DNA of 64,000 nt, from the NCBI RefSeq assembly GCF_007489275.1, contig NZ_VLNR01000003.1, positions 62,001-126,000 of the forward strand, written 5' to 3'. Positions 472 through 15,944 of the stretch are shown piece after piece. Under the pieces are notes generated by a model. That model did not search any database, was not told where the DNA came from, and saw only the letters and a list, made by a program, of their open reading frames with translations. Origin of the DNA: Aquimarina algiphila (GTDB taxonomy: Bacteria; Bacteroidota; Bacteroidia; Flavobacteriales; Flavobacteriaceae). The translations under genes and the position numbers were made by a program. Positions within the stretch are counted from its first letter, which is position 1. The number at the start of each line of letters is the position of its first letter.

Positions 472-509
472 TATTTTCATGATACCAGTTTAATTGTTTT
501 TTAAGAATT

Positions 510-548
510 AAAAGCATTAGTGGTGTTTTATATAACATCAATGCTTTT
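510..548 (+). terminator. Hairpin terminator after the TonB receptor gene
   Basis: AAAAGCATT and its complement AATGCTTTT enclose a short AT-rich loop and are followed by a T run. It lies 38 bases after the receptor stop and 13 bases before the next start, so the downstream genes probably start from readthrough or a promoter within this gap. Confidence 0.6.
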
Positions 549-561
549 TTGAATATATACT

Positions 562-1878
562 ATGGATAAAAGAAATTTGATTGAAGAAGCAGAAAAAGTC
601 TTGAATAATAACTTTCAGAAAGAAGGGTTTACAATTCCTTGTGAAGGGTTGTATCCATTCCAATGGAAATGGGATTCTGGTTTTATTGCAATTGGTTATG
701 CTTATTTTGATGTTGCAAAATCCAAAAAAGAAATAACTACATTACTAGATGCGCAATGGGAAAATGGTTTTATTCCGCATATTGTTTTTCACACAGATAG
801 TGACACTTATTTTCCAGGACCTGATTTTCATAAATCTGAATTACATCCACAATCTTCAAGAGAATTCCGTTCTACAGGAATGACACAACCACCGATTACC
901 GGTTTCATTTTAGAGGAAATGCATAGAATTGTGGAAGATAAAGAAGATATGTTGTCTTTTGTTAAAAGTCATATTGATAGAGTATATAAAAATCATGAAT
1001 ATTTTTATGGGCAAAGAGATCCTCGTAATGAAGGACTAGTGTATATTTATCATAATTGGGAGTCTGGAACAGATAATTCACCTATGTGGGATGATATATG
1101 GAAAACTATGAATCCTCCAGAATATGAATTTGAAAGAAGAGATACTACTCATGTAGATCCATCTCAACGCCCTTCAAAAAGAGAATATGATCATTACCTA
1201 CATATTATAGAAATTGCAAAGAATCATAACTATGATGATAAAGCAATAGCAGAAACTTCTCCGTTTTTGATTCAAGATCCATTGTTTAACGCAATGCTTA
1301 TTAAATCAAATGAATCATTAATCAATTTATATGAAGTAATAGGAGGTCACTCAAACAAAATTGATCAGTTAAGAATATGGCAAAGAAAAAGTATAAGAAG
1401 TTTTAATGAGAAGCTTTTTAATAATGAGTTAGGAGTATATGTTCATTATGACCTTAGAAATGAAAAACAGATTTCATTTGTTTCATCATCATCTTTTGCT
1501 CCATTGTTTGCAGGGATTCCAGATATAGATAAAGCAAAAGTTCTTGTCAATACAATGTTAGAACGTTTTGGAGGTGAGGATAAGTATTTGTGCGCTTCTT
1601 TTGATCCTGCAAATGAAAGATTTAATCCAAAAAAATATTGGAGAGGTCCAGTATGGATTAATCTAAACTGGATGTTGTATTACGGATTAAAGAAATATGG
1701 ATATGATGAATTAGCTAAGAGAGTTAAAAATGATTCGGTAGAACTTATTGATAAGGCTGGTTTTTATGAATATTTTGATCCAAGAAAAAATATGTATAAG
1801 AATATGGAGCATGGTGGATACGGAGGAAGAAATTTTTCTTGGAGTGCAGCATTATTGATAGACCTTTTAAAAGATTAA
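562..1878 (+). CDS. GH63-like glycoside hydrolase (mannosylglycerate hydrolase type)
   Basis: The 438-residue protein has no signal peptide, so it should act in the cytoplasm. It is an (alpha/alpha)6-barrel enzyme of the MGH1-like/GH63 group: an aromatic N-terminal block (LYPFQWKWDSGF), QWENGFIPH, the NWESGTDNSP block with Asp171 as the likely acid residue, YWRGPVWINLNW, and a C-terminal NFSWSAALL block. Enzymes of this group split mannosylglycerate or glucosylglycerate into a hexose and glycerate. The glycerate kinase three genes downstream fits that product very well. It starts an apparent operon with the acetyltransferase 10 bases downstream. It could also act on another alpha-glucoside or mannoside; family assignment is firm, substrate is inferred. 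Confidence 0.82.
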   Translation: MDKRNLIEEAEKVLNNNFQKEGFTIPCEGLYPFQWKWDSGFIAIGYAYFDVAKSKKEITTLLDAQWENGFIPHIVFHTDSDTYFPGPDFHKSELHPQSSREFRSTGMTQPPITGFILEEMHRIVEDKEDMLSFVKSHIDRVYKNHEYFYGQRDPRNEGLVYIYHNWESGTDNSPMWDDIWKTMNPPEYEFERRDTTHVDPSQRPSKREYDHYLHIIEIAKNHNYDDKAIAETSPFLIQDPLFNAMLIKSNESLINLYEVIGGHSNKIDQLRIWQRKSIRSFNEKLFNNELGVYVHYDLRNEKQISFVSSSSFAPLFAGIPDIDKAKVLVNTMLERFGGEDKYLCASFDPANERFNPKKYWRGPVWINLNWMLYYGLKKYGYDELAKRVKNDSVELIDKAGFYEYFDPRKNMYKNMEHGGYGGRNFSWSAALLIDLLKD

Positions 1879-1888
1879 TTTTATAGAT

Positions 1889-2506
1889 ATGCATAAGCAA
1901 AAAATAAGATTTAATTTTTCAGATACGTATATTTTGGAGGATGATGTGGTGAAATTGGTTCCGCTAGAAGTTGAACATATTAAAAGCTTATTAGAAATTT
2001 CAAATGATCCGAATATTTGGATGTATTTTTTTGAAAAAGGAAACGAAATCAAGAATTTAACCAAATATGTCAAATCTGCAATTGAAAACCGAAGACGTAA
2101 GAAAGAGTATCCATTTGTTGTGTTTGATAAAAGAAAAAATAGATATGCAGGCAGTACTCGTTTCTATGAATTTATACCAGATCTTAATACTATTAAACTG
2201 GGACATACCTGGTATGGAAAAGAATTTAGAGGTACTGGATTAAATAAGCATTGCAAATATTTATTATTTGAATTTATGTTTGAAAAATTAGGGTTGGAAA
2301 GAATAGGCTTTGGAGCTTATGTTGAGAATGAAATTAGTATTGCGGCGATGACAAGTGTAGGATGTAAAAAAGAAGGAATATTAAGAGGTTTTTTTCCATC
2401 ACTTAATGGAAAAGGAAGAACCGATGCTATAGTTTTAGGTATTCTTAAAAAAGAATGGAATGAAAATGTAAAATACCAATTGAAAAATAAATTAAATAAA
2501 GTCTGA
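1889..2506 (+). CDS. GNAT family N-acetyltransferase (RimJ/RimL-like)
   Basis: This is a 205-residue GNAT protein. The acetyl-CoA binding region is visible as YGKEFRGTGLNKH near residue 110, followed by a helix and the FGAYVENEISIAAM segment typical of the RimJ/RimL branch, which acetylates amino groups of proteins or small molecules. It begins 10 bases after the hydrolase stop and so is probably co-transcribed with it. Its role in the putative glycosylglycerate pathway is not evident; it may modify an amino sugar or simply ride along in the operon. Confidence 0.8.
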   Translation: MHKQKIRFNFSDTYILEDDVVKLVPLEVEHIKSLLEISNDPNIWMYFFEKGNEIKNLTKYVKSAIENRRRKKEYPFVVFDKRKNRYAGSTRFYEFIPDLNTIKLGHTWYGKEFRGTGLNKHCKYLLFEFMFEKLGLERIGFGAYVENEISIAAMTSVGCKKEGILRGFFPSLNGKGRTDAIVLGILKKEWNENVKYQLKNKLNKV

Positions 2507-2558
2507 TTATTAAGGAATACTTGTTTTTAGCTGTTGTTAATACATTATACATAACCAT

Positions 2559-4160
2559 ATGAATTACTTGGATTATATCATTATCATTTTATACCTCGTA
2601 GGGTTTATTGGGATAGGTTACTTTTTTAAAGAAAATAAAACATCTCAAGATTATTTTTTAGGCGGAAAAAGCATGGGGTGGTTTCCTTTAAGCTTATCTA
2701 CAATGGCTACACAATTATCAGCAATAAGTTTCATCTCGGCTCCAGCCTTTGTAGGCTTGAAAGATGGAGGTGGATTGCAATGGTTGACTTATGAATTTGG
2801 AGTGCCTCTAGCGATGGCTTTTTTAATGATTGCGATAATCCCTCCATTGTATAAATCGGGAATTATCAGTGTATACGAATTTCTTGAAAGAAGATTTGAT
2901 GCTTCTTCGAGATTATTGATAAGTTTTGTGTTTCAGATTAGTAGGTCAGTAGCTACAGGAGTAATGGTATATACGATGTCTCTAATTTTGCAAGCAACCA
3001 TTGGAATTGATTTCTGGGTATCCATTTTAATAATAGGTGTTATTACTTTGCTATATTCATATCAGGGAGGAATGAAAGCAGTAATATGGGGAGATGTAAT
3101 ACAAATGATCATTCTCTTTCTGGGAATTGTTATTTGTTTGATTTATGGTATTAGCGAATTGGGTGGTTTAGATAATTTTTTAACAAACGTAGATCAAGAT
3201 AGAATTACTGCAATTGATTTTTCAAAATGGGGATTTAATAATGCTGATAAACAGGATGAATTTGGCTTCTGGCCAATGGTAATAGGTGGTTTCTTCTTAT
3301 ATGCTTCCTATTATGGTACTGATCAGACACAGTCTCAAAGATTATTATCAGCAAGTAATATGTCTACAATTAAAAAACTATTGTTAGCAAATGGACTTTT
3401 TAGATTTCCTATAACACTTACGTATTGTATTATGGGGTTAGTATTGGGAACACTTTTAGTAATGGATGTAAATTTTGCACAAGCAATGGATTCGATATAT
3501 CAAGAAAATATTACATCATTAGAAGGAAAAAAAGCTGATTTAATGGTTCCAGTATTTATAATCCATTATTTACCCAATGGTATTATAGGAATCCTAATTA
3601 TAGCAATCATGTCTGCGGCAATGTCTTCGCTAAGCTCCACCGTAAATTCCTTATCCGCCGTGACAATGGAAGATTTTATTAAGAGATACAAAAAAGATAT
3701 TCCTTTGGATCGATATGTAACATATTCCAGGGTGCTATCGGTATTTTGGGGAATAGTATGTTTAGGTTTTGCATTTTTTGCAGGAAATATAGAAGGGACA
3801 GTAATAGAAGTCATAAATAAAATCAGTTCCATATTTTATGGGCCTATCCTCGCAGCGTTTGTATTAGCTATCTTAACAAAAAAGACTAGTGCATTTGGAG
3901 CTAACATTGGTATTATCACTGGTGTTTTATGTAATATGTATTTATGGTTATATGTTCCCGAAATATTTTGGTTTTGGTGGAATGCTATCGGTTGTCTCGT
4001 TACAATCATTATAGGGTATTCGATAAGCTTATTGTTAAAAAACAGAAATAATAATGTATTGGAGACCGTTTTTTACAAACAAAAAAAAGAAATATTTATT
4101 CTTTTGGGATATTTTATACTAATCATTTCTATTGCATGGTTTTTACCAAAACTATTCTAA
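2559..4160 (+). CDS. Sodium:solute symporter (SSS family)
   Basis: A 533-residue protein with about 13 hydrophobic segments. The N-terminal block with FLGGKSMGWFPLSLS and SAISFISAPAF matches sodium/sugar (SGLT-like) symporters, and MSAAMSSLSSTVNSLSAV in the middle is the conserved SSS helix. It moves a small solute across the inner membrane with sodium. It lies between the hydrolase and the glycerate kinase with short gaps (52 and 31 bases), so the natural cargo is the glycoside or glycerate handled by those enzymes; that is an inference from context. Confidence 0.9.
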   Translation: MNYLDYIIIILYLVGFIGIGYFFKENKTSQDYFLGGKSMGWFPLSLSTMATQLSAISFISAPAFVGLKDGGGLQWLTYEFGVPLAMAFLMIAIIPPLYKSGIISVYEFLERRFDASSRLLISFVFQISRSVATGVMVYTMSLILQATIGIDFWVSILIIGVITLLYSYQGGMKAVIWGDVIQMIILFLGIVICLIYGISELGGLDNFLTNVDQDRITAIDFSKWGFNNADKQDEFGFWPMVIGGFFLYASYYGTDQTQSQRLLSASNMSTIKKLLLANGLFRFPITLTYCIMGLVLGTLLVMDVNFAQAMDSIYQENITSLEGKKADLMVPVFIIHYLPNGIIGILIIAIMSAAMSSLSSTVNSLSAVTMEDFIKRYKKDIPLDRYVTYSRVLSVFWGIVCLGFAFFAGNIEGTVIEVINKISSIFYGPILAAFVLAILTKKTSAFGANIGIITGVLCNMYLWLYVPEIFWFWWNAIGCLVTIIIGYSISLLLKNRNNNVLETVFYKQKKEIFILLGYFILIISIAWFLPKLF

Positions 4161-4191
4161 ATACAATTAATACTCGAAAAGATATAAGCGA

Positions 4192-5343
4192 ATGAAATTT
4201 GTAATTGCGCCGGATAAGTTTAAAGGATCTCTTGATGGTTTTGAGTTTTGTGATGCTGTTGAAGAAGGTTTGCGGCAAGTAATTCCAAAAGCAAAAATAA
4301 TTAAGCTTCCTCTTGCAGATGGAGGAGATGGAACAATGGAAGTTATTCGATATTATCTAAAGGGCGAAAAAGTCAGTAGTACAATAAACGACCCTCTTTT
4401 TAGAAAGATAAGTGCTAACTATCTCTTTAATTCTCAAGAAAAGATAGCATATATTGAAATGGCAGAAGCTTCTGGATTAAAATTGCTAAAAGAATCAGAA
4501 CAGAATTGTATGAATACTTCTTCTTACGGAACAGGAGAATTAATAGTAGATGCAATAGACAAAGGAGCAGAAAGAATTATATTAGGAATCGGAGGTAGTA
4601 GTACTAATGATTGTGGAATTGGAATGGCAGAAGCACTAGGGTATAGGTTTTTAGATTGTGCTGGCAATAAAGTGACTCCTGTCGGAAAGAATTTGTCTTC
4701 AATAACAAAAATAAATACACATCATCTTCATCCAAAATTGGCAAATGTAAAATTTGAAGTGGCGTGTGATGTGAATAATCCTCTATACGGAAAAAATGGA
4801 GCAGCAAAAATATATGCAGCACAAAAGGGGGCTTCCAAAAGTGAAATAGAATTTTTGGATCTTGGGTTGCGACATTTTTCTAACCTATTAAAAGTAGAGT
4901 TTTCTAAAGATGTGCAAAAAGAAAAAGGATCTGGAGCGGCAGGGGGAATGGGAGCGGCAGCAATTACATTTTTAAATGCAAACTTAATATCTGGAATTGA
5001 GTTAGTTAAAAGAATGGCAGATATTGATATACATATTAAAGATGCTGATTGGGTGATTACTGGTGAAGGCAGATTAGATAGGCAAACATTAGCAGGTAAA
5101 ACAATGAAAGGAGTTGTTGATAGTGCTAAAAAAATGAATATTCCGGTAGCTGCTTTTTGTGGAATTGTGGATATCCCAGATAAAGATTACCATCAATTAG
5201 GACTAAGATTCTCGACCTCAATTCTTTTGGATATTGTTCCCTTAGAAGAAGCGATTAAGAATAGTTATCAAAACCTAAGATTTTCGGTTATGAATTTTGC
5301 AAATGCGATATACCAAAATGAGGATAAAAAACTTGAAGGTTAA
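4192..5343 (+). CDS. Glycerate kinase (GarK/GlxK family)
   Basis: A 383-residue protein of the class in which MKFVIAPDKFKGSL opens the chain, with PLADGGDGT and the GIGGSSTNDCGIGMAEALG block in the first half and GEGRLDRQTLAGK near the C-terminus. These are the landmarks of type-I glycerate kinases, which phosphorylate glycerate (usually to 2-phosphoglycerate) and feed it into glycolysis. It is the last gene of the likely operon beginning at 562 and explains what happens to the glycerate released by the GH63-like hydrolase. Length is normal for the family and all motifs look intact. Confidence 0.93.
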   Translation: MKFVIAPDKFKGSLDGFEFCDAVEEGLRQVIPKAKIIKLPLADGGDGTMEVIRYYLKGEKVSSTINDPLFRKISANYLFNSQEKIAYIEMAEASGLKLLKESEQNCMNTSSYGTGELIVDAIDKGAERIILGIGGSSTNDCGIGMAEALGYRFLDCAGNKVTPVGKNLSSITKINTHHLHPKLANVKFEVACDVNNPLYGKNGAAKIYAAQKGASKSEIEFLDLGLRHFSNLLKVEFSKDVQKEKGSGAAGGMGAAAITFLNANLISGIELVKRMADIDIHIKDADWVITGEGRLDRQTLAGKTMKGVVDSAKKMNIPVAAFCGIVDIPDKDYHQLGLRFSTSILLDIVPLEEAIKNSYQNLRFSVMNFANAIYQNEDKKLEG

Positions 5344-5639
5344 AGAGCATGTAAGCTAAATTCTGTCTGTACTAAATTTTAATTATTGATTTTACTATGT
5401 GGTATTATGACAAACGATGAACAAAAAGGATTTTAGAAAAAAGACTTGACCAGTCTATATGAGCATTCGGTTAGAACTTTTTTGAGAAAGACAGTCACAT
5501 TTACTTCTATATCGAAAAGAAATGGAAGAGTCTTTTGTATAATTGAAGCCTTATAGTCCAATAATTTTATATTTAATTTAAGGAGAGGAATTGAAACAAT
5601 GGATAAGATTTATTTATATACCCATCTTTAGCTTTCTAA
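5344..5639. other. Gene-free stretch after the glycerate kinase
   Basis: About 300 bases with stop codons in all frames. I see no clear hairpin terminator, RNA gene or intact short ORF with a credible start. It marks the boundary between the metabolic operon and the accessory peptide island. Confidence 0.5.
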
Positions 5640-5792
5640 TTAAAGTACTAGTTCGGTATCGAACCCTGTACCTACAGGCTCTATACGTCGTTCAAGACCT
5701 GATGTGTCAATAGCAGTTACTTTAGGCCTGTCTCCTCCATAAACTTTTTTTAGTTGTTTTGCGTTTATTTTAAATTGCTTTAAATTTTTCAT
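5640..5792 (-). CDS. Short double-glycine-leader peptide A (50 aa)
   Basis: An ATG-started 50-codon ORF reads MKNLKQFKINAKQLKKVYGG as its first 20 residues, followed by a 30-residue tail beginning DRPKVTAIDTSG and ending ELVL. A basic, amphipathic leader ending in Gly-Gly is the form used for bacteriocin or RiPP precursors exported by C39-peptidase ABC transporters. The tail has no cysteine and carries both charges. No transporter or modifying enzyme adjoins it. It is short enough to be lost in automatic gene calling. The reading frame and GG leader are seen directly; export and function are inferred. Confidence 0.55.
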   Translation of the reverse strand: MKNLKQFKINAKQLKKVYGGDRPKVTAIDTSGLERRIEPVGTGFDTELVL

Positions 5793-5888
5793 AATTAATT
5801 TTTAAGAATTATACCTACTCTATTTTTATTAAGCTTTTCGGTTTTCGCAAACTTTAATACAAAAGGAAACATTACTTTATTGATATGT

Positions 5889-6344
5889 ATGGAACATGCT
5901 AGAAGGGATTTTGAAAAAACTCTGAATAGGGATGCATTCTGAGCCAGATATGTATTGGGGCAAAATCAAAAGCTATACGCTATAGAGTGAAAAGCAAGGA
6001 AACTTGAAAGTTCAGCTGAACAGAGAAACCGTTACCGCAAATTATATGCTGCTTCAATTTTAAATAGTTTTGAAAGTTAGTCTAAGGTACAGGTTCTTGA
6101 GGTTCTGCCTAAAAGTGCTAAGGGAAAAGCAATTGGATGTGCATTAAAATTATGGAACAAACTGAAAAGATATATCACTGATGTCATTTTGAGATTTACA
6201 ACAATTAGGAGGAGAACATCATCAAACTATGGGCTCTAGGCAGAAAGAATTATCCGTTTTTCGGGTTTTCATAGAGCTGCTCAAAAAACTGTAATGTTAT
6301 ATTCTTTATTTACCAGTTGTAAAATTAATATTATAGCCCCATAG
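5889..6344 (+). pseudogene. Decayed IS66-family transposase, C-terminal remnant
   Basis: Reading from 5889 in one frame gives IS66 TnpC C-terminal sequence broken by four in-frame stops (the first at 5940). Recognisable pieces are QNQKLYAIE with a stop then KARKLESSAEQR, VLPKSAKGKAIG, and the C-terminal AAQKTVMLYSLFTSCKI. In the +1 frame around 6190-6260 the expected block reappears as LWALGRKNYPFFG, so at least two frame changes are also present. The N-terminal two thirds of the transposase, the tnpA/tnpB partners and the terminal repeats are not seen. It is an old insertion scar within the peptide island. Confidence 0.85.
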
Positions 6345-6445
6345 TATATGAAATTATGGAGGATAGTGAGGTGTTTTATCTCTTTACTATTTGTGGGGTT
6401 AGCCAATTCTGTAGATTTGCTATTAGTAAATTGAATGTATATTGG

Positions 6446-6549
6446 TTGCTAAACGCTACAATAAGAAAGAAGGATGTTTGGAAACACGATTTATTAGAAG
6501 CTTACAATTAATACCAAGCCCTATTTTATCTTTTCGTAGCGTTTAGCAA
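6446..6549. repeat. 14-bp perfect inverted repeat spanning about 100 bp
   Basis: TTGCTAAACGCTAC at 6446-6459 is exactly matched in inverse by GTAGCGTTTAGCAA at 6536-6549, with 76 bases between. Weak similarity extends inward on both arms. The right arm lies 9 bases beyond the stop of the minus-strand peptide gene at 6559. It could be the ends of a small non-autonomous element left by the IS66 event or a long-loop terminator. Confidence 0.6.
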
Positions 6550-6558
6550 AAGTTTATT

Positions 6559-6759
6559 TTATTCAAGATATACAGTAGCAGATACACCACCTCTATCTCG
6601 GCACCAGCGGCTACCGCCTCGTTCTACTGAGCTTTCTGATTCTGCAGATGCGCTAAATGATTCTCCATTACCACAAATTACTAAACCATGCCCACCTGCA
6701 TTGATTTTTGATAATAATTTCTTGTCAATTCTATACTTAGAAAAATTTTTTAAATACAT
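6559..6759 (-). CDS. Short double-glycine-leader peptide B (66 aa)
   Basis: The ATG at 6757-6759 opens a 66-residue peptide. Its first 23 residues are basic and end LLSKINAGG, a double-glycine leader. The 43-residue tail is glycine- and serine-rich with an acidic middle (SASAESESSVERGG) and two cysteines (VICGNG and RWCRDRGG) that could form a disulfide or be modified. No lanthipeptide, radical-SAM or ABC-peptidase gene lies nearby. It is oriented like peptides A and C. It is a probable secreted bacteriocin, RiPP precursor or signalling peptide; the GG leader is visible, the function is not. Confidence 0.6.
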   Translation of the reverse strand: MYLKNFSKYRIDKKLLSKINAGGHGLVICGNGESFSASAESESSVERGGSRWCRDRGGVSATVYLE

Positions 6760-6917
6760 AAAATGTAATTTTAAAGTGTTATTGAATAATTATCTAATCA
6801 TAAGTAGTTAACATAGAACTTTTTTCGCAATAATTTATATTAACCGTTTGTTTCCGGAATTTATAAGTTAATATAATTACTTTGCTTATTTAAAGTTAAA
6901 TAATGCTAACTTAATGT

Positions 6918-7097
6918 TTAGAATATATGATATACCCCTTCTGAATCAAGATATACCAATCTGTTAAGATCATTAGTAGGTGCGGATCCTTCATAACACC
7001 TTCCTATACTATGATCACATATACGTGCCCCGCCGACTATTTTTTGTTGTTGACTTTTGCTTAATGTTTTTCCGAAATCTAAAATCGATTTTTTCAT
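6918..7097 (-). CDS. Short double-glycine-leader peptide C (59 aa)
   Basis: I place the start at the ATG at 7095-7097, giving MKKSILDFGKTLSK as the N-terminus; the frame stays open ten residues further upstream but that extension is hydrophobic and unlike the family. The 23-residue leader ends QQQKIVGG and closely follows the flavobacterial bacteriocin-type leader pattern (MKKSILxxGKxLxKxEQKxIxGG). The 36-residue tail begins ARICDHSIGRCYEG with two cysteines six residues apart and ends VYHIF. It is the most typical GG-leader peptide of the group. Confidence 0.72.
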   Translation of the reverse strand: MKKSILDFGKTLSKSQQQKIVGGARICDHSIGRCYEGSAPTNDLNRLVYLDSEGVYHIF

Positions 7098-7445
7098 AAT
7101 ATATATTTTAATTATTTGATACCACAATATGTTTAGTGTCGTTTGTGATTCTACGACTAAAATTTTTATACATTCATTTTATAGAAAATGATATGAATAT
7201 ACAGGTTGGCTGCATAGTTTTGAGATACTAAAGTATGTGTAAAAGGAAATTTTTTCAAGAGGATCTGGTCAGCATTTATAAATTTTACCTTATCGATTTA
7301 TAAATTTTACCTTACCATTTTGTAACTTCTAATCCTTTTTAGAATTGTCATGATAACCTTGTTTTTTTGCATTTCCTTTAATATTCTTTGTATGTTTACC
7401 CAAAATTTTGTTAAAAACTAATCCTTGCCCTTGGTTAGAGTACAT
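7098..7445. promoter_or_regulatory. Divergent regulatory region between peptide C and the TPR/AraC gene
   Basis: This gap of about 350 bases separates the minus-strand peptide genes from the plus-strand regulator and should hold both promoters. Its clearest element is the pair of 19-base direct repeats listed separately. I cannot place a convincing TAnnTTTG promoter box. Confidence 0.45.
7274..7314 (+). repeat. Two 19-bp direct repeats, 22-bp period (operator-like)
   Basis: ATTTATAAATTTTACCTTA occurs at 7274-7292 and again, identically, at 7296-7314. A 22-base period puts both copies on the same DNA face, as expected for tandem AraC-type binding sites. The repeats lie about 130 bases before the regulator start. 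A nearly identical motif appears in the palindrome at 9179-9202, before the fourth peptide gene. The repeats are seen directly; binding by the regulator is inferred. Confidence 0.65.
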
Positions 7446-9146
7446 ATGAGAGTTATTAGTTTATTTGTAATAATAGGATGCTTTATATCTACATTGTATT
7501 CTATGCAAGAACAGAAAGAAATCTATAATAGTTCTTCTGATTCACTAAAAGAGAAGACACTTCAAGAACTCAATACTCTTTTTTGGAATAGTAAAAATCA
7601 GGATTCAATAATCAAGCATGAGTTAGCGAATTTTTACATAGTAAAGGCTAAAAAGAATAAGGATAGAGAAAAGATTGCTGATGGATATCAAATGTTTCTT
7701 TCTATTTATGAAAAACAACCAGAGATATCATTACGGTATATAGATTCTATTATAAATGTAACAAAAGACTTAGAAAATAATCATTACCCATCCACGGGGT
7801 ATATGATGAAAGGAAATTTATTAAGTGGAGTTGAAAGATATGATGAATCTTTAGAGGCATATTTAATAGCTAAAAAGTATGCGGAAATTAATGATAACAG
7901 TTGGCAATTGATGGGGTTGAAACATAACATTGCCTTATTAAAGACTATTCTGGGGAAAGAGGAGGAAGCATTATTAGTGTTTAAGGAGAATTATAATCAT
8001 TTCAAAAAACAAGATGAAGTAGAAAAGCCTAGTCAGATCTATATTGCTACATTGTATGGGTTGTCAAAAAGTTACAATCGTCTTAAAAAATATGATTCGG
8101 CATATTTTTATTTGCAAAAAGGTATAAAATCTAGTTTATCTAGCAATCGTAAGTTCTATTATTCAGATTTGTTGTTTGCATTTGGGATAAATAGTTACTA
8201 CAGGAATGAATACAACCCCGCGATTGATAGTTTACAAAAAGCGCTAAATTTATTTGAAGACGATATTAATAAATCACAGGTAAGAATTAGTTATTTATAT
8301 TTAGGAAAGATCTATTTAAAGATAAAAGAAGAGCCCCGGGCACTAAGTTATTTACAAAAAGTTGATGCTGTAACCAATGATTCGAATTATAGATTAGAGA
8401 TAAGAGACGCTTTTACTTTATTAATTGATCATTATAAAAAAAGTAATGATCAAAACAACCAATTAAAAGTAATGGAAAAATTGGTACGATATGATAGTAT
8501 TTCTGCTATAAAACAGAGTCGTTTAAATAACTCAATTGTTAAAAAATATGATACTCCACAATTGATAAAGGATAAAGATCAATTGATAAGAGAAATTGTT
8601 AATAATAATAAGCGTTCAACTTATAGGTTGATAGTCTTAAGTGCTTTTGTAATGGTTGGGATAAGTTTTTTATTCAGATATTTTTATAAGAAAAGGAAAA
8701 GTGCTTACAAAACTTTGTTGAACAAGGAATTGAAAAGAGTTGAAGTTTTAGAGAAAAAGAATTCCAAATCTGTAAAGACAAGTTTAGACCTTTCTGTAGA
8801 GTTAAAACAAGAGATACTTAAGAAGTTAAGTGATTTTGAAAGTGATCTTGGGTATTTGAAAAATGATCTTACTCTAGCTAAGGTTTCAAAAAGTTTAAAA
8901 ACGAATTCTACTTATTTGTCTAATGTTATTAATATGGAAAAACAAAAGAATTTTGCAACTTACATTAATGATTTGCGAATTGCATATTGTATTTTAAAGA
9001 TAGAAGAGAATAAAATGTTTAGACAATATTCAATTAAGTCAATGGCAAAAGAAGTAGGGTTTAATAACATTCAATCATTTGCAAAGGCCTTTTCTAAAAA
9101 TAAAGGGTGTAACCCTGCAGAATATGTTAAAAGGTATAGGGATTAG
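7446..9146 (+). CDS. Membrane-anchored TPR protein with C-terminal AraC-type HTH
   Basis: I start at ATG 7446, where MRVISLFVIIGCFIS gives a signal or anchor sequence; a TTG 21 bases upstream would add seven non-typical residues. Residues about 30-370 are helical tetratricopeptide repeats (for example YLYLGKIYLKIKEEPRALSYLQK). A membrane helix follows near 393-412 (YRLIVLSAFVMVGISFLF), then a basic linker and a C-terminal AraC helix-turn-helix of about 100 residues with VGFNNIQSFAKAFSKNKGCNPAEYV. The layout implies that the TPR domain senses something in the periplasm and the HTH binds DNA in the cytoplasm. Flanking by GG-leader peptides suggests that it responds to or controls them. Domain calls are firm; the circuit is inferred. 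Confidence 0.87.
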   Translation: MRVISLFVIIGCFISTLYSMQEQKEIYNSSSDSLKEKTLQELNTLFWNSKNQDSIIKHELANFYIVKAKKNKDREKIADGYQMFLSIYEKQPEISLRYIDSIINVTKDLENNHYPSTGYMMKGNLLSGVERYDESLEAYLIAKKYAEINDNSWQLMGLKHNIALLKTILGKEEEALLVFKENYNHFKKQDEVEKPSQIYIATLYGLSKSYNRLKKYDSAYFYLQKGIKSSLSSNRKFYYSDLLFAFGINSYYRNEYNPAIDSLQKALNLFEDDINKSQVRISYLYLGKIYLKIKEEPRALSYLQKVDAVTNDSNYRLEIRDAFTLLIDHYKKSNDQNNQLKVMEKLVRYDSISAIKQSRLNNSIVKKYDTPQLIKDKDQLIREIVNNNKRSTYRLIVLSAFVMVGISFLFRYFYKKRKSAYKTLLNKELKRVEVLEKKNSKSVKTSLDLSVELKQEILKKLSDFESDLGYLKNDLTLAKVSKSLKTNSTYLSNVINMEKQKNFATYINDLRIAYCILKIEENKMFRQYSIKSMAKEVGFNNIQSFAKAFSKNKGCNPAEYVKRYRD

Positions 9147-9178
9147 TTTGCTGTATATAGTTTTATATAAAAAAAACA

Positions 9179-9202
9179 GGTTAAAATTTATAAATTTTAA
9201 CC
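9179..9202. promoter_or_regulatory. 24-bp perfect palindrome before peptide D
   Basis: GGTTAAAATTTATAAATTTTAACC is fully self-complementary with no loop, which fits a protein-binding site better than a hairpin. Its core ATTTATAAATTTTA-ACC matches the direct repeats at 7274-7314 apart from one inserted base. It lies 70 bases upstream of the peptide D start and 30 bases after the regulator stop. Confidence 0.6.
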
Positions 9203-9271
9203 GCTAAATAATTTTGAATCTATGTTGATCAATATTTCTTTTTTATTTTTAACTACTAATTAAAAGATGTT

Positions 9272-9460
9272 ATGGAAAAAAGAAAAATCGGATTAAAAAA
9301 AATTAACATTACAAAATTGGGTATCTCAATGCAATATGTAAATGGGGGTAATGATTTAGAAAGAGCTTCAAGACTTGGTAATGATTGTAGTGGAGGAGGT
9401 TGTGTTTCTGATATTAAGCCTTGTGTTGGGACTGCTTTTAAAAGAATTGATGATTATTAA
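9272..9460 (+). CDS. Short double-glycine-leader peptide D (62 aa)
   Basis: This 62-residue peptide starts at an ATG after an AT-rich leader region. The first 26 residues are basic (MEKRKIGLKKINITKLGI) and end QYVNGG; the 36-residue tail carries three cysteines in the order NDCSGGGCVSD and KPCVG, then ends KRIDDY. The pattern resembles the natural-product precursor families of Bacteroidota (GG leader with a Cys/Gly-rich core). It lies downstream of the TPR/AraC gene on the same strand, with the 24-base palindrome between. No maturation gene adjoins it, so any modification or export would use proteins encoded elsewhere. Confidence 0.68.
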   Translation: MEKRKIGLKKINITKLGISMQYVNGGNDLERASRLGNDCSGGGCVSDIKPCVGTAFKRIDDY

Positions 9461-9495
9461 TATTACATGATTTAGACTACCTAGAATGAACAACA

Positions 9496-9530
9496 AAAAG
9501 CCCAAATCAAGATTAGTGATTTGGGCTTTT
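9496..9530. terminator. Strong bidirectional terminator
   Basis: AAAAGCCCAAATCA and TGATTTGGGCTTTT form a perfect 14-pair stem with a short loop and T runs in both directions. It ends both the plus-strand peptide D transcript and the minus-strand acyl-CoA dehydrogenase transcript. Confidence 0.9.
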
Positions 9531-9551
9531 AGATTAGAGAATTTTAACTAA

Positions 9552-10694
9552 TTAATCTCTAAGAATGCTTCGTGATATTACGATCTTTTGGATTTCGCTG
9601 GTTCCTTCATAGATCTGAGTGATTTTAGCATCTCTCATTAATCGCTCTACATGATACTCTTTAACAAAACCATTACCTCCATGTACTTGTACTGCTTCTA
9701 TACTAACATCCATTGCAGCTTGAGATGCAACAAGTTTTGCCATAGCTCCTGATAAGTCATAATTTTCGTGATTATCTTTGTCCATCGCTGCTTTATATAC
9801 TAGCATACGAGCTGCTTCAATCTGTACATGCATGTCTGCAAGTTTGAAAGCGATTGCTTGATGATTCATAATTTCAGTACCAAAAGCTTTACGAACCTTA
9901 GCATATTCTTTTGCTAATTCATACGCTCCTGCTGCAATTCCTAGTGCTTGAGCTGCAATTCCTATACGCCCTCCAGCTAAAGTCTTCATTGCAAATTTAA
10001 AACCAAAACCATCTTCTCCAATACGATTTTCTTTAGGAACTTTTACATCATTAAAAATTAGAGAGTGAGTGTCACTACCACGTATCCCTAACTTATCTTC
10101 TTTGGGGCCAATTTCAAATCCTTCCCATCCTTTTTCAACGATAAATGCATTAATACCTTTATGTTTTTTTTCTTTATCCGTTTGCGCAATGACCAAATAG
10201 TAATCTGCAGATCCTCCATTAGTGATCCAGTTCTTGGTTCCGTTAAGAATATAATGATCTCCTTTGTCTACAGCTGTTGTTTTTTGAGATGTTGCATCAC
10301 TACCAGCTTCGGGTTCAGATAAACAGAAAGCTCCAATAGATTCTCCTGTGGTAAGTTTTGTTAGATATTTTTCTTTTTGTTCTGGAGTGCCATAGGTGTC
10401 AAGTCCCCAGCATACTAAAGAATTATTTACAGATACAATAACAGAACAAGATGCATCTATCTTGGATAACTCTTCCATAACCAAAACATAAGAGATGGTA
10501 TCCATTCCTCCTCCTCCATATTCTGGAGAAGCCATCATGCCTAAAAACCCAAGTTCCCCCATTCTTTTTACTTGTTGAGTAGGAAATTCTTGTTTGTTAT
10601 CACGCTCAATTACTCCTGGTAATAATTCAGTTTTGGCAAAATCACGAGCTGCATCTCGTATCATTAACTGTTCTTCGGATAATTTAAAGTCCAT
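9552..10694 (-). CDS. Acyl-CoA dehydrogenase
   Basis: I start at ATG 10694 (MDFKLSEEQLMIRDAARDF), which is where the family begins; the frame is open 11 residues further upstream but that part is unlike the family. The 380-residue flavoprotein shows the signature CLSEPEAGSDA near residue 130, the GGRIGIAAQALGIA helix, and the YEGTSEIQK motif containing the catalytic glutamate near the C-terminus. It oxidises short-chain or branched acyl-CoA to the enoyl-CoA in fatty-acid or branched-chain amino-acid breakdown. It stands alone and ends in the terminator at 9496-9530. A palindrome-like motif (10712-10725) sits just upstream of its start. Confidence 0.95.
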   Translation of the reverse strand: MDFKLSEEQLMIRDAARDFAKTELLPGVIERDNKQEFPTQQVKRMGELGFLGMMASPEYGGGGMDTISYVLVMEELSKIDASCSVIVSVNNSLVCWGLDTYGTPEQKEKYLTKLTTGESIGAFCLSEPEAGSDATSQKTTAVDKGDHYILNGTKNWITNGGSADYYLVIAQTDKEKKHKGINAFIVEKGWEGFEIGPKEDKLGIRGSDTHSLIFNDVKVPKENRIGEDGFGFKFAMKTLAGGRIGIAAQALGIAAGAYELAKEYAKVRKAFGTEIMNHQAIAFKLADMHVQIEAARMLVYKAAMDKDNHENYDLSGAMAKLVASQAAMDVSIEAVQVHGGNGFVKEYHVERLMRDAKITQIYEGTSEIQKIVISRSILRD

Positions 10695-11151
10695 ATTTCT
10701 GTATAATTTACTGTGCGCGCATAACACGCAATTCTTACTTTTCGATGAAAATAAATCGAGATAACCTCGTAAATTTTATTAATCCCACAAATATAAGTGA
10801 TAATATGATAGTTTTGCTGTTTTTTTCGTTTTTTGATATAATGATTTTTATTAGTGTTGTTTAAGAAATTTTTTGAATATGCTTTACTAAATTCTATGAT
10901 AATATCTCAAGCGAAACATTCTGTTGTTTATTAGCATAATTTTATTTTTATTTATCCTTTTGACGTATTTAGTTTTTTATATTTGTGAAGTCTCATTTTG
11001 ACTGTAATTTCAATGTATTGTAATACCTTATAATATGACTCAACTCTAACCTCTGTAATGGAGGGATTATTTTATTAAAAAAAAGACAATTATAAAGGAT
11101 GTTGCTGCAAAAGCATACAGTTATGTATTCAATGGATTGAAATTTAAAAGA
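10695..11151. promoter_or_regulatory. Divergent intergenic region, about 460 bp
   Basis: It separates the minus-strand acyl-CoA dehydrogenase from the plus-strand amino-acid dehydrogenase. TATATTTG at 10978-10985 matches the Bacteroidota -7 box and a TTTG lies 15 bases before it, a little closer than usual, so this may be a plus-strand promoter. The last part also shows a short LacI-like coding remnant discussed in the findings. Nothing else is apparent. Confidence 0.4.
10712..10725 (-). promoter_or_regulatory. Possible operator TTATGCGCGCACAG before acyl-CoA dehydrogenase
   Basis: Read on the minus strand this is TTATGCGCGCACAG, 18 bases upstream of the chosen start. It closely resembles the palindrome TTATGCGTGCATAA before the ketoacyl synthase gene (48135-48148). 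Two acyl-metabolism genes sharing the site suggests a common fatty-acid regulator, which is inferred. Confidence 0.4.
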
Positions 11152-12378
11152 ATGAAAGAGTTATTAAAAATATACGAAAATAAAGAGCCTGAAATAATTT
11201 TTAATTGGAAAGATGCAGAAACCGAAGCAGAAGGTTGGACGGTTATAAATTCTTTACGAGGAGGAGCAGCTGGAGGAGGAACAAGAATGAGAAAGGGTTT
11301 AGATATGAATGAAGTACTTTCTTTGGCAAAAACAATGGAAGTTAAGTTTACAGTATCTGGACCTGCAATAGGTGGAGCCAAATCTGGTATTAATTTTGAC
11401 CCAGAAGATCCGCGTAAAAAAGGAGTGCTTAAACGATGGTACAAAGCAGTGTCCCCATTATTAAAAAGCTATTATGGAACTGGAGGAGATCTTAATGTTG
11501 ATGAGATTCATGAAGTGATACCTATTACAGAAGAATGTGGAGTTTGGCATCCTCAGGAAGGAGTTTTTAATGGTCATTTTCAACCCACTGAGGCTGACAA
11601 AATAAATAGAATTGGACAGCTACGACAAGGAGTGATTAAGGTATTAGAAAATACTATGTTTTCTCCTAATGTTTCCAGAAAATATACTGTTGCAGATATG
11701 ATTACTGGATATGGAGTTGCTGAAGCTGTTCGACACTATTACGATATTTATGGTGGAGAAGTAAAAGGGAAAAGAGCTGTAGTACAGGGATTTGGAAATG
11801 TAGGATCGGCAGCTGCTTATTATCTTTCAGAAATGGGAGCAAAGATTGTGGGAATAATCGATCATGCCGGAGGGTTAATAAATGAAAACGGTTTTTCTTT
11901 TGAAGAAATTAAACAACTGTATTTAAATAAAAAAGGAAATAAACTGTATAGCGAAAACCTTATTCCTTTTGAAGAATTAAATAAAAAAATATGGTCGCTC
12001 AAAACAGAAATTTTTACTCCATGTGCTGCGTCAAGGTTAATAACAGAAGATCAAATAAGTCAAATGATTAATTCGGGTCTTGAGGTGATTTCTTGTGGTG
12101 CCAATGTTCCTTTTGCTGATAAAGAAATATTTTTTGGACCAATCATGGAATATACGGATGAGAGAGTAAGTTTGATACCTGATTTTATCTCTAATTGTGG
12201 AATGGCAAGAGTTTTTGCATATTTTATGGAGCGCAAAGTACAAATGACAGATGAAGCTATTTTCATGGATACATCAGAAACCATAAAAAGAGCTATTCAA
12301 AGCACTTACAATAATAAACAAACACAAACTAATATAAGTAAAACAGCATTTGAGATTGCTCTCAAACAGCTGATATAG
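11152..12378 (+). CDS. Glu/Leu/Phe/Val-type amino-acid dehydrogenase
   Basis: The first ATG is at 11152 (MKELLKIYENKEPE), giving 408 residues; the frame is open upstream from a TTG at 11137 and beyond without an ATG. The protein has the substrate block RGGAAGGGTRMRKGL, the catalytic-lysine region GPAIGGAKSGINFDP, GTGGDLNVDE, and the nucleotide-binding VVQGFGNVGSAAAYYL. It reversibly deaminates an amino acid with NAD(P). The lineage branch is closer to leucine/glutamate dehydrogenases than to the large hexameric GdhA, and specificity cannot be read. NhaB follows 27 bases downstream. Confidence 0.9.
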   Translation: MKELLKIYENKEPEIIFNWKDAETEAEGWTVINSLRGGAAGGGTRMRKGLDMNEVLSLAKTMEVKFTVSGPAIGGAKSGINFDPEDPRKKGVLKRWYKAVSPLLKSYYGTGGDLNVDEIHEVIPITEECGVWHPQEGVFNGHFQPTEADKINRIGQLRQGVIKVLENTMFSPNVSRKYTVADMITGYGVAEAVRHYYDIYGGEVKGKRAVVQGFGNVGSAAAYYLSEMGAKIVGIIDHAGGLINENGFSFEEIKQLYLNKKGNKLYSENLIPFEELNKKIWSLKTEIFTPCAASRLITEDQISQMINSGLEVISCGANVPFADKEIFFGPIMEYTDERVSLIPDFISNCGMARVFAYFMERKVQMTDEAIFMDTSETIKRAIQSTYNNKQTQTNISKTAFEIALKQLI

Positions 12379-12405
12379 TATTAATCGCATTAATCAAGTA
12401 CAACT

Positions 12406-13875
12406 ATGTTTAAGTATTTTTTAGGTAATAGTCCGAAATGGTATAAAACTCTAATGATCGGATTTTTAATTTTTAATGTATTTTCTTATTTCATTTTGGG
12501 GCCAACCGTGACAGCTTGGCTATTTATTGGAGAATTTATTTTTACTCTAGCGATGGCACTTAAATGTTATCCATTGCAATCAGGAGGGTTACTGGCTATA
12601 GAAATTCTAGCATTAAATCTAACAACACCAAAAAACGCTTATCATGAGGTAGATCAAAATCTAGAAGTTGTGTTACTGTTGGTGTTTATGGTAGCGGGAA
12701 TCTATTTTATGAAACCCTTGTTAATGTATATTTTTAGTAAAGTATTTACTAAAATAAAATCTAAAATGATACTTTCTTTACTGTTTGTGTTTTTAGCAGC
12801 AGTACTTTCTGCATTTTTGGATGCTCTAACGGTTACTGCTGTTTTGATAAGTGTAGCAGTAGGATTTTATGGAGTATATCATAAGATTCATTCTGGGTCT
12901 GGAGACTATGATGAGAGTGGAGTTTTAGATAAAAAAGAATTAAGTGGTGAAACTCTTGAGCAATTTAGAAGTTTTCTAAGAAGTTTGGTAATGCATGGTG
13001 TTGTAGGTACTGCGCTAGGAGGAGTATGTACATTGGTTGGTGAGCCTCAAAATTTATTAATTGGAGAGCGAATGGGATGGGATTTTATAGAATTTTTCCT
13101 TAAAATGGCACCAATTTCATTACCTGTTTTAGGAGCAGGGCTTATTACAACGGTTATTCTGGAGACTACAGGGTCCTTTGGTTTTGGTGCAAAATTACCA
13201 GAGGTTGCTAGAAATATTATTGAGAATTATACAGAAAAGGAAGATGCTAACAGATCTGATAAATCCAAATACGGACTAATAGTACAGGCTGTATCAGCTC
13301 TGCTTTTGATTGTTGGTCTGGCATTACATTTGGCTCCGGTAGGGTTTATTGGATTAGCATTAATTATTGTGCAGACGGCATTTATGGGGATTACAGAAGA
13401 GCACCATTTAGGAAAAGCATTCGAAGAAGCACTTCCATTTACAGGTTTGATTGTAGTTTTCTTTGTCATTGTTGCAATGATTCATGATCAGCATCTCTTT
13501 AAACCGATTATTGATTGGGCATTATCTCTAGATCCAGGACAGCAGCCTTCCATGTTTTATGTGGCTAATGGAGTATTATCTATGATAAGTGATAATGTTT
13601 TTGTGGCTACAGTATATATAGGAGAAGTTAAGCAGGCTTTTGATAACGGAGCAATATCTAGGGAGCAGTTTGAAAAATTAGCAATTGCAATAAATACAGG
13701 AACAAATTTACCAAGTGTTGCAACACCTAATGGGCAAGCGGCGTTCTTATTTTTACTAACTTCCTCTTTAGCTCCATTGATTGGATTGTCCTATATGAAA
13801 ATGGTAAAAATGGCCTTTCCATATACAATAGTACTAGGAGGTATTGGTTTATTGGGAATAATATATATATTGTAA
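12406..13875 (+). CDS. nhaB: Sodium/proton antiporter NhaB
   Basis: A 489-residue, many-helix membrane protein that follows E. coli NhaB nearly from end to end as I recall it: [16 protein letters not shown] is replaced by [16 protein letters not shown], then [27 protein letters not shown]-like [18 protein letters not shown], and [20 protein letters not shown] near the C-terminus. It expels sodium in exchange for protons at the inner membrane, fitting a marine habitat. It lies 27 bases after the dehydrogenase and before the ExbB-ExbD-TonB genes. Confidence 0.95.
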
Positions 13876-13908
13876 AGAGAAAAAACATACTTAACCTACA
13901 GAAATAAC

Positions 13909-13922
13909 GTTAGTATACTAAC
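13909..13922. promoter_or_regulatory. 14-bp palindrome before exbB
   Basis: GTTAGTATACTAAC is perfectly self-complementary and ends 20 bases before the exbB start. It could be an operator for the TonB-energising genes. No repressor is encoded beside it, so the regulator is unknown. Confidence 0.4.
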
Positions 13923-13942
13923 ACTAAATTAACAAAATCAAA

Positions 13943-14644
13943 ATGACGTATTTATCTATGCTTGGTGTTTTAGCCCAAAACACCCCAGAAAATAACCCAG
14001 AATTAGAAGAAACTTCATTATCTATTATGGACCTTTTGTTTAGCGGAGGTACCGGTGCTGTAGTTATCATCTCTATTCTTTTTGTATTGCTCTTTGTAGC
14101 TGTATATATCTATTTTGAAAGACTCTTTGCAATTAAAGCAGCTTCAAAATATGACGAAGGTTTTATGAGTAAAATTAGAGATAGTGTAGTTAGTGGTAAA
14201 ATTGAAGCAGCAAAAATTTTATGTGCTCAAACCAATAATCCCGTAGCAAGATTAACCGAAAAAGGAATTTCTAGAATAGGTCACTCTTTAGAGGATATAA
14301 ATAAAGCTATTGAAAATGCAGGTAGACTAGAGGTATATAAACTGGAAAAAAATGTAAGTATTTTAGCAACGGTTGCAGGAGCAGCTCCCATGATTGGATT
14401 TTTAGGAACAGTAATTGGTATGATTTTGGCATTCCATAATTTGGCTTCTAGTTCAGGAACTGCCGATATGGGGGTTCTGGCTGAAGGTATTTATACTGCG
14501 ATGACAACCACTGTAGGTGGATTAGTAGTAGGAATTGTAGCATATATTGGATACAATCATCTGGTAGTACGTACGGATAAAGTGATTCATAGTATGGAAG
14601 CTAACGCTGTAGATTTCTTGGACTTGTTAAACGAACCTGCATAG
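13943..14644 (+). CDS. exbB: MotA/TolQ/ExbB proton channel family protein
   Basis: A 233-residue inner-membrane protein with one N-terminal helix (VVIISILFVLLFVAVYIYF), a cytoplasmic helical region and two C-terminal helices around APMIGFLGTVIGMI and the TAMTTTVGGLVVGIVAY block. These are the ExbB/TolQ landmarks. With ExbD it uses the proton gradient to energise TonB and so outer-membrane receptors such as the one at the start of the window. exbD starts one base after its stop, tonB 4 bases after that, so the three form one unit. Confidence 0.93.
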   Translation: MTYLSMLGVLAQNTPENNPELEETSLSIMDLLFSGGTGAVVIISILFVLLFVAVYIYFERLFAIKAASKYDEGFMSKIRDSVVSGKIEAAKILCAQTNNPVARLTEKGISRIGHSLEDINKAIENAGRLEVYKLEKNVSILATVAGAAPMIGFLGTVIGMILAFHNLASSSGTADMGVLAEGIYTAMTTTVGGLVVGIVAYIGYNHLVVRTDKVIHSMEANAVDFLDLLNEPA

Positions 14645-14645
14645 T

Positions 14646-15038: not shown

Positions 15039-15042
15039 TAAT

Positions 15043-15936: not shown

Positions 15937-15944
15937 TATAGCAT

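What the first reader, a model, noticed from the sequence alone, without database searches (positions are those of the whole stretch)
5640..9470. Island of four double-glycine peptides around a membrane TPR/AraC regulator
Seen: four short ORFs (5640-5792, 6559-6759, 6918-7097, 9272-9460) each begin with a basic leader ending in GG, with cores unlike one another and containing 0, 2, 2 and 3 cysteines. Between them lies a 566-residue TPR protein with membrane helix and cytoplasmic AraC HTH. Known: such leaders are cleaved by C39-peptidase ABC exporters, and TPR/AraC membrane regulators are a Bacteroidota sensor class. Inference: the regulator senses an exported peptide (its own or a competitor's) and controls the peptides, a peptide-based sensing or competition system. 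No exporter or maturation enzyme is adjacent, so it would use machinery elsewhere, and the diverse cores suggest an open arsenal.
Basis: partly seen in the sequence, partly recalled or inferred. Interest (0 to 1): 0.85.

Follow-up and report, generated by a model that had tools for sequence, protein, structure and literature searches.

The report
Membrane regulator paired with export-tagged peptides
A marine bacterium carries a membrane-bound gene switch beside small peptides that look tagged for export, and the same pairing recurs across its relatives with a shared DNA tag in front of the peptides, which looks like an undescribed bacterial peptide-signalling or competition network.

Summary
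Observation confirmed: four GG-leader ORFs flank a 566-residue TPR-TM-AraC regulator; 400 shuffles of the island's non-coding DNA gave at most 1 such ORF against 4. Genus: Aquimarina. The peptides are not equal. The downstream one (9272-9460) is the regulator's partner: 69 of 100 full-length relatives of the regulator have a same-strand GG peptide within 500 bp downstream, 80 of 100 by a leader profile. Genome-wide in 8 genomes, 49 of 55 leader hits at E<=1e-6 lie just downstream of such a regulator (35 of 41 without the profile's own rows). A palindrome lies between regulator and partner, and two half-copies lie before the divergent peptides. Searching 12 genomes for this box gave 12 unlinked sites; 10 have a GG peptide within about 525 bp, six of them arrays of 3-5. 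So this is a regulon of export-tagged peptides under a one-component membrane regulator; the partner is most likely its signal, the rest effectors. Binding, export and activity are inferred; fast core change beside a near-constant sensor and a good structural match to sugar-sensing MalT speak against the signal role.

The parts
7446..9146 (+). TPR-TM-AraC one-component regulator, 566 aa: N-terminal hydrophobic segment, TPR superhelix about 39-360, TM-like segment about 391-417, AraC-type HTH about 451-562
   Evidence: Pfam; model, mean pLDDT 88.8, pTM 0.66; hydropathy
9272..9460 (+). Partner GG peptide (peptide 4), leader MEKRKIGLKKINITKLGISMQYVNGG, core of 36 aa with 3 Cys; proposed signal
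   Evidence: position kept in orthologs; pairing statistics
9179..9202 (.). Perfect 24-bp palindrome GGTTAAAATTTATAAATTTTAACC, proposed operator of the partner peptide, 32 bp after the regulator stop and 69 bp before the peptide ATG
7275..7311 (.). Two direct copies of TTTATAAATTTTACC 22 bp apart between peptide 3 and the regulator, proposed operator of the divergent peptides
6918..7097 (-). GG peptide 3, leader MKKSILDFGKTLSKSQQQKIVGG, of the leader type of the remote box-bearing arrays; proposed effector; off frame in 5 of 5 collinear loci
6559..6759 (-). GG peptide 2, 2 Cys, well conserved, on an exchangeable cassette; proposed effector
6340..6910 (-). Exchangeable cassette around peptide 2: 90-92% nt identity to L081 (G044) and L080 (G035), although the regulator genes there align at 64-65% nt
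5640..5792 (-). GG peptide 1, no Cys; intact in G004, start lost in two other loci; proposed effector
5883..6320 (+). Remnant of an IS66 transposase (stops inside) between peptides 1 and 2
   Evidence: DDE_Tnp_IS66, E 2.7e-16

Best explanation
The locus is one copy of a recurrent module: a membrane-anchored one-component regulator (TPR superhelix proposed to be periplasmic, one TM helix, cytoplasmic AraC-type HTH) followed at a short distance by its own GG-leader peptide, with a palindromic operator between them. Most likely the partner peptide is cut after GG and exported by a C39-type ABC exporter encoded elsewhere, is sensed by the TPR domain, and the HTH then acts at boxes before the partner gene (feedback) and before further GG peptides: here peptides 3, 2 and 1, in sister species a remote array of 3-5 GG peptides. 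Those further peptides are probably effectors (bacteriocin-like). Shown by sequence: recurrence of the pairing, shared box, box before unlinked GG peptides, exporter linkage and co-occurrence. Inferred: that this regulator binds the box, the sign of control, export, topology, ligand identity and effector activity.
For: Pairing: 64 of 101 regulators have a same-strand GG peptide starting 100-200 bp downstream (6.3/kb, against 0-0.01/kb beyond 1.5 kb on that strand); 69 of 100 within 500 bp; 80 of 100 by a leader HMM built from 67 of the same peptides. Genome-wide in 8 genomes 49 of 55 leader hits at E<=1e-6 and 57 of 78 at E<=1e-3 lie <1.5 kb downstream of a regulator match, chance about 0.12% each; 35 of 41 at E<=1e-6 without the profile's own rows. 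Control: 17 weaker HTH matches of the own genome, 0 GG peptides in their flanks. Box: the two upstream copies are present in 6 of 6 loci with divergent GG peptides and absent or degenerate in 4 of 4 without. Box search in 12 genomes: 26 distinct sites, 14 at the locus, 12 unlinked; of these 12, 10 have a GG peptide within about 525 bp (6 are arrays at 429-433 bp), 1 lies 103 bp before a C39 exporter gene, 1 before nothing related; reversed-pattern control 2 hits. Palindromes of other sequence lie in the same place behind other paralogs: 21 of 67 stretches at p<=0.05, orthologs not independent. Exporters: of 19 listed C39 places (of 29 matches) in 8 genomes, 12 lie within 10 kb of a regulator, 0.7 expected; 51 of 51 genus genomes with a strong regulator match have a C39 match, 8 of 15 without one have none. 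The TPR part aligns with peptide-bound NprR and Rap. Core similarity follows TPR distance given HTH (partial rank r 0.175, p 0.002) more than HTH given TPR (0.050, p 0.048).
Against: In close orthologs the core changes fast while the TPR part hardly does (G064 vs G063: TPR dN 0.01, core dN 0.42; core dS 0.37 against TPR dS 0.04, so cores seem swapped by recombination), which fits an effector better than a signal matched to its receptor. The correlations are small and the pairs not independent. MalT domain III, the sensor of a sugar-responsive activator (function recalled), aligns as well as or better than NprR (Z 22.4 against 21.6), and unrelated TPR proteins rank first. 20 of 100 regulators have no leader-family peptide, 46 of 67 intergenic stretches have no significant palindrome, and outside the genus only 15 of 41 loci have a leader-family neighbour. 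About 2 of the box sites may be chance. No expression, binding or activity data.
Confidence: 0.55

Rival explanations
1. The regulator controls GG peptides through the same boxes, but its ligand is something else (a competitor's peptide, envelope fragments, a sugar or other metabolite); the partner peptide is the nearest effector of a competition regulon.
For: Partner core dN/dS is 0.72-2.22 in 20 of 21 ortholog pairs while TPR is nearly constant; peptide cassettes are exchanged between species; the TPR part aligns well with sugar-sensing MalT.
Against: A partner with one leader type lies behind most paralogs at a similar distance, distinct from the leader type of the remote box-bearing arrays; core follows TPR better than HTH across paralogs.
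Confidence: 0.34
2. The partner peptides are lanthipeptide or other RiPP precursors, modified in trans, and the regulator is an ordinary cluster regulator (not exclusive of the two readings above).
For: 32 of 44 partner peptides match the class I lanthipeptide leader model NF038153 and 14 the rSAM-RiPP model TIGR04149 at E<=0.1, curated cut-offs not checked for each; the genome's single Lant_dehydr_N match lies between such regulators and a C39 exporter on C261.
Against: The window's partner peptide matches neither model; 7 of 66 partner cores have no Cys; no modifying enzyme was recognised by eye among the ORFs; one LanB match for 14 regulator matches in the genome.
Confidence: 0.15
3. The peptides are chance ORFs or decayed remnants and the clustering is an artefact.
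For: Peptide 3 off frame in 5 of 5 collinear loci; peptide 1 start lost in 2 of 3.
Against: Shuffle test, purifying selection on partner leaders and on peptide 1, recurrence, box before unlinked GG peptides.
Confidence: 0.02

Closest known systems
Com/Blp-type pheromone and bacteriocin regulons of streptococci (ComC/BlpC, C39 exporter, ComDE/BlpRH)
   Same: Signal peptide and effector peptides carry GG leaders; a common promoter element (direct repeat) marks the regulon (PMC5295010, passages)
   Different: One-component TPR-TM-AraC regulator in place of histidine kinase and response regulator; Gram-negative; exporter not at this locus; function untested
RRNPP quorum sensing (Rap, NprR, PlcR, Rgg, PrgX) of Firmicutes
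   Same: TPR receptor gene next to a small propeptide gene; TPR fold similar
   Different: RRNPP receptors are intracellular and 250-500 aa, most propeptides are Sec-exported (PMC10075063, passages); here 566 aa with a TM-like segment and GG leaders
Bacteroidetocins, and RiPP clusters of Bacteroidales with TPR genes
   Same: GG peptide plus C39-type exporter in Bacteroidota (PMC6671954, passages); TPR genes in 2 of 9 RiPP clusters with a pheromone role suggested (PMC10352776, passages)
   Different: A term search of PMC6671954 found no AraC or tetratricopeptide; no TPR-TM-AraC/peptide pair or shared operator in the passages seen
Class I lanthipeptide leader family NF038153 (lant_leader_L1a)
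   Same: 32 of 44 partner peptides match at E<=0.1
   Different: Window peptide does not match; the only LanB match is elsewhere; some cores lack Cys

Membership tests
RRNPP quorum-sensing system | Receptor and propeptide genes adjacent | tested here: met
RRNPP quorum-sensing system | TPR fold that binds the peptide | tested here: inconclusive
   TPR fold present; binding not testable here
RRNPP quorum-sensing system | Intracellular receptor of 250-500 aa | tested here: not met
   566 aa with a TM-like segment
RRNPP quorum-sensing system | Propeptide exported through Sec (exceptions exist) | tested here: inconclusive
   Leader is short, K-rich and ends in GG; no signal-peptide program was run
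Com/Blp-type GG-peptide regulon | Several GG-leader peptides behind one promoter element | tested here: met
   by sequence only
Com/Blp-type GG-peptide regulon | Histidine kinase and response regulator as receptor | tested here: not met
   the regulator is one-component; no kinase recognised by eye among the ORFs of 1-16000
Com/Blp-type GG-peptide regulon | C39 exporter in the genome | tested here: met
   5 matches, none at this locus
Com/Blp-type GG-peptide regulon | Peptide induces the regulon; effectors kill | not testable with these tools
   needs experiment
Class I lanthipeptide system | Leader matches the curated model | tested here: not met
   window peptide 4: no NCBIfam match; peptide 3: L1b 11.9 bits, cut-off 27
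Class I lanthipeptide system | LanB at the locus | tested here: not met
   the only Lant_dehydr_N match of the genome is on C261; LanC not searched
AraC-type (HTH_18) regulators | HTH_18 match over cut-off | tested here: met
   38.9 bits, cut-off 33.6

The most novel reading that the evidence does not exclude
Flavobacteriales have an undescribed class of peptide signalling: a one-component transmembrane TPR-AraC receptor and its own GG-leader signal peptide, present in many specificity types per genome, each with its own palindromic operator, and driving cassettes of swappable GG effector peptides, some unlinked to the receptor.
Probability: 0.45. Interest if true: 0.92.

Novelty: new variant of a known kind. 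Interest (0 to 1): 0.8.

Why it matters
Peptide quorum sensing with adjacent receptor and propeptide genes is described for Firmicutes (PMC10075063, passages). A Gram-negative counterpart with a membrane one-component receptor, with up to 15 matches per genome, would give a handle on how Flavobacteriales switch on peptide export, would help to tell which of their many GG peptides are signals and which effectors, and would suggest that some peptides labelled lanthipeptide precursors are signals.

Tried and rejected
Naming the four peptides by Pfam or NCBIfam gave nothing over a cut-off. Treating all four as one family was rejected: leaders fall into different types. 'Box before every exporter' was rejected: seen in G021 only, not in L302 or L303, exporter regions of G064 and G063. 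Strict receptor-core matching among close orthologs was not supported. Taxonomic reach: at E<=1e-60 the regulator family was found in 22 of 296 Bacteroidota genomes, all of the same order (only the 4 best candidates per genome were scored). An earlier stricter pattern gave 6 of 28 downstream partners outside the genus; the leader HMM on a larger set gave 15 of 41, 10 downstream and 5 divergent.

Limits of the counts. The 100 loci were taken mostly down the list (which scored at most about 21 candidates per genome and did not list all matches), plus own-genome, exporter and peptide-2 loci. The leader HMM was built from 67 of the peptides it then finds. One search scored 126 of up to 239 candidates in some genomes, so its regulator list may be incomplete. 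From (92 matches) the 14 above E 1e-3 were dropped. One pair (L216) was dropped before (66 of 67 used). The 17 control loci are weaker HTH matches, some of them fragments of unknown make-up, and a few have shorter flanks. One search used the 19 C39 places listed for its 8 genomes, not all 29 matches. In one search the threshold was E<=0.1; curated cut-offs were not checked member by member. On second reading I added the MalT match, which I had left out, and lowered the main reading from 0.58 to 0.55 and raised its rival from 0.32 to 0.34 for that reason.

Literature: 10 searches, of which only the top rows of each listing were seen and two found no paper, showed no description of this pairing. 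The library is open-access only, so absence is weak.
Full report
WHERE IT IS. The window is contig C195, 62001-126000, of a 7.0-Mb genome. So this is an Aquimarina (Flavobacteriaceae). The link between names and handles is inferred from these lengths.

OBSERVATION. The four ORFs and the regulator are as described. Peptides 1-3 are on the minus strand upstream of the regulator; peptide 4 is on the plus strand behind it. In the island's non-coding DNA (5344-7445 and 9147-9560) 4 ORFs pass a GG-leader rule; of 400 dinucleotide shuffles 380 gave 0 and 20 gave 1.

THE REGULATOR. Pfam: HTH_18, TPR_12 and TPR_2 over their cut-offs. An AlphaFold2 model from 62 sequences has mean pLDDT 88.8 and pTM 0.66: TPR superhelix (about 39-360), a long helix 336-438 that holds the TM-like segment, HTH from 451. 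Hydropathy peaks start at residues 1-4 and 390-397; the basic stretch after the second suggests a cytoplasmic HTH and a periplasmic TPR part (inference). The TPR part aligns with peptide-bound NprR (Z 21.6) and Rap proteins (Z about 19-21.5), but also with sugar-sensing MalT domain III (Z 22.4) and, ranking first, with an unrelated TPR protein (Z 24.9). The fold allows peptide binding and does not prove it.

THE PAIRING. 100 loci (1.55 Mb) held 101 distinct full-length regulators. 64 of 101 have a same-strand GG peptide starting 100-200 bp after the stop; 69 of 100 with enough sequence have one within 500 bp; beyond 1.5 kb the same-strand downstream density is 0-0.01/kb. A leader HMM, which also takes leaders ending in AG or GA and non-ATG starts, raises this to 80 of 100; 7 of 101 HMM hits are more than 1.5 kb from a full-length regulator. 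The partner leader is K-rich, mostly with L at -20, K at -16, I/V at -4 and GG. Cores differ widely: length 13-62, median 30; Cys 0-7, none in 7 of 66. In 11 genomes searched with both profiles (8 have regulator matches), leader hits lie <1.5 kb downstream, same strand, of a regulator in 18 of 18 at E<=1e-9, 49 of 55 at 1e-6, 54 of 69 at 1e-4 and 57 of 78 at 1e-3; chance is about 0.12% each. Without the 14 places that are rows of the profile, 35 of 41 at 1e-6. From the regulator's side, 41 of 71 matches, fragments included, have such a hit behind them. The three genomes without regulators (G041, G047, G062) have no credible leader peptide: two weak hits inside long frames in G062. Control: 17 weaker HTH matches of the own genome, 0 GG peptides in their flanks of up to 1.5 kb. 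Divergent GG peptides upstream are enriched too: 16 at 300-1000 bp on the opposite strand of 97-99 regulators.

THE BOX. Between regulator and partner the window has a perfect 24-bp palindrome (9179-9202); between regulator and peptide 3 it has two direct copies of its half (7275-7289, 7297-7311). In nine relatives compared by eye a box sits a few tens of bp after the regulator stop, degenerate in G007 and G021. The upstream pair is kept in the 6 of 10 loci with divergent GG peptides (window, G064, G063, G017, G004, G021) and absent or degenerate in the 4 without (G016, G034, G023, G007). In two more distant loci with peptide 2 (L080, L081) one upstream copy was found, in L080 with a mismatch. 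A search for GGTNARNATTTATAAATTTTNACC with up to 2 mismatches in 12 genomes gave 26 distinct sites; the reversed control gave 2; G033 and G024, without a close ortholog, gave none, and G007 gave none. 14 sites are at the locus. Of the 12 others, six (G016, G017, G023, G034, G063, G064) lie 429-433 bp before a tandem array of 3-5 GG peptides with leaders of the peptide-3 type (MKKSILNLGKALSKAEQKSINGG and the like); one is a cassette in G021 with an off-frame peptide 3 and, about 520 bp off, peptide 2; two precede a single GG peptide by 159 bp (G063:C3, G064:C2); one lies behind a paralogous regulator before its partner (G004:C13); one lies 103 bp before a C39 exporter gene (G021:C39); one (G034:C13) has nothing related. 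The pattern was made from this locus and its orthologs without reference to those arrays, so finding GG peptides there is an independent test. Other paralogs have palindromes of other sequence in the same place, for example GTCTGGTTTCCGGAAACCAGAC; 21 of 67 stretches reach p<=0.05 against 60 shuffles each; orthologs in this set are not independent.

EXPORT. The genome has 5 C39 matches over cut-off. Of 19 C39 places listed for 8 genomes (29 matches in all), 12 lie within 10 kb of a regulator, 0.7 expected. Over 66 genus genomes, 51 of 51 with a strong regulator match (E<=1e-50, a threshold I chose) have a C39 match, and 8 of 15 without one have none (Fisher p about 1e-6); some of the latter are small or incomplete and species are related, so this p-value is optimistic. 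The single Lant_dehydr_N match of the genome lies between regulators and a C39 exporter on C261.

EVOLUTION. Among 7 orthologs (21 pairs, simple NG86 counts on short sequences) dN/dS is 0.09-0.29 for TPR, 0.04-0.16 for HTH, and 0.72-2.22 for the partner core in 20 pairs (the other has no core change); for the leader it is 0.06-0.19 in 12 of the 15 pairs without the window, 0.66 and 0.86 in two, undefined in one, and 0.41-0.74 against the window. The core's dS is raised as well in some pairs, so whole cores are probably exchanged. Across 66 pairs, core similarity follows TPR distance given HTH (0.175) more than HTH given TPR (0.050), while leader similarity shows the reverse (0.095 and 0.208). 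The first result fits fast effectors, the second a ligand; I regard the ligand question as open. Peptide 2 sits on a unit (about 6340-6910) 90-92% identical to G044 and G035 although the regulator genes there align at 64-65%; alignable copies lie in stretches without a detected regulator in G011, G021, G054 and G042. An IS66 transposase remnant (E 2.7e-16) lies between peptides 1 and 2.

BEYOND THE GENUS. Of 41 distinct regulator loci from other genera of the order, 10 have a leader-family peptide downstream and 5 a divergent one; 26 have neither.

MECHANISM. Best reading: the partner peptide, cut at GG and exported, is sensed by the TPR part; the HTH acts at boxes before the partner and before effector GG peptides here and elsewhere. 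Shown: anatomy, recurrence, shared box, exporter linkage. Inferred: binding, sign of control, export, ligand, effector activity. The main rival keeps the regulon but gives the regulator another ligand.

KNOWN OR NEW. It works like a Com/Blp-type GG-peptide regulon (PMC5295010, passages) and resembles RRNPP in gene order and TPR receptor (PMC10075063, passages), but misses defining features of both (membership test). A survey of Bacteroidales RiPP clusters notes TPR genes in 2 of 9 clusters and a possible pheromone role (PMC10352776, passages). A genome survey of Flavobacteriaceae reports many RiPP clusters in Aquimarina (PMC10734526, passages). Ten searches showed no account of this pairing; the library is open-access only.

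Noticed in passing
6918-7097 (peptide 3) and L082, L084, L085, L117, L118: An A-tract just before the GG codons differs between loci (6, 7 or 8 long; L082 also has 6 but differs before it), and the core is out of frame with the leader in 5 of 5 collinear loci while its own frame stays open for about 35-48 codons; phase variation, slippage and recent decay cannot be told apart.
   Followed up: partly
5883-6320: Remnant of an IS66 transposase between peptides 1 and 2.
   Followed up: yes
6446-6471 and 6524-6549: 26-nt inverted repeat (85% complementary) just behind peptide 2, inside the exchangeable cassette; terminator or element end.
   Followed up: no
L085 (G032): Regulator counterpart of which only residues 1-84 and 486-562 align, while the upstream boxes and the divergent peptide region remain.
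   Followed up: partly
L292 5800-5823 (G021:C39:98800): Box with 2 mismatches 103 bp before a C39 exporter gene; not seen in L302 and L303; may be chance.
   Followed up: partly
A3 members (44 partner peptides): 32 of 44 match the NCBI class I lanthipeptide leader model at E<=0.1, so automatic annotation might call such peptides lanthipeptides; curated cut-offs were not checked one by one.
   Followed up: partly
L293-L298: The remote arrays hold overlapping sets of cores in differing number and order between species, as if peptides were gained and lost as cassettes.
   Followed up: no
L103 and L104 (own genome C261, about 62300-76500): Three regulators (one broken into two frames), partner peptides, a LanB match, what look by eye like a second LanB piece and an HlyD-type protein, and a C39 exporter in one stretch.
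   Followed up: partly
29092-29223 (+) and 56812-56943 (-): Two further short ORFs pass the GG rule in the window; cores look unlike the others, probably chance.
   Followed up: no
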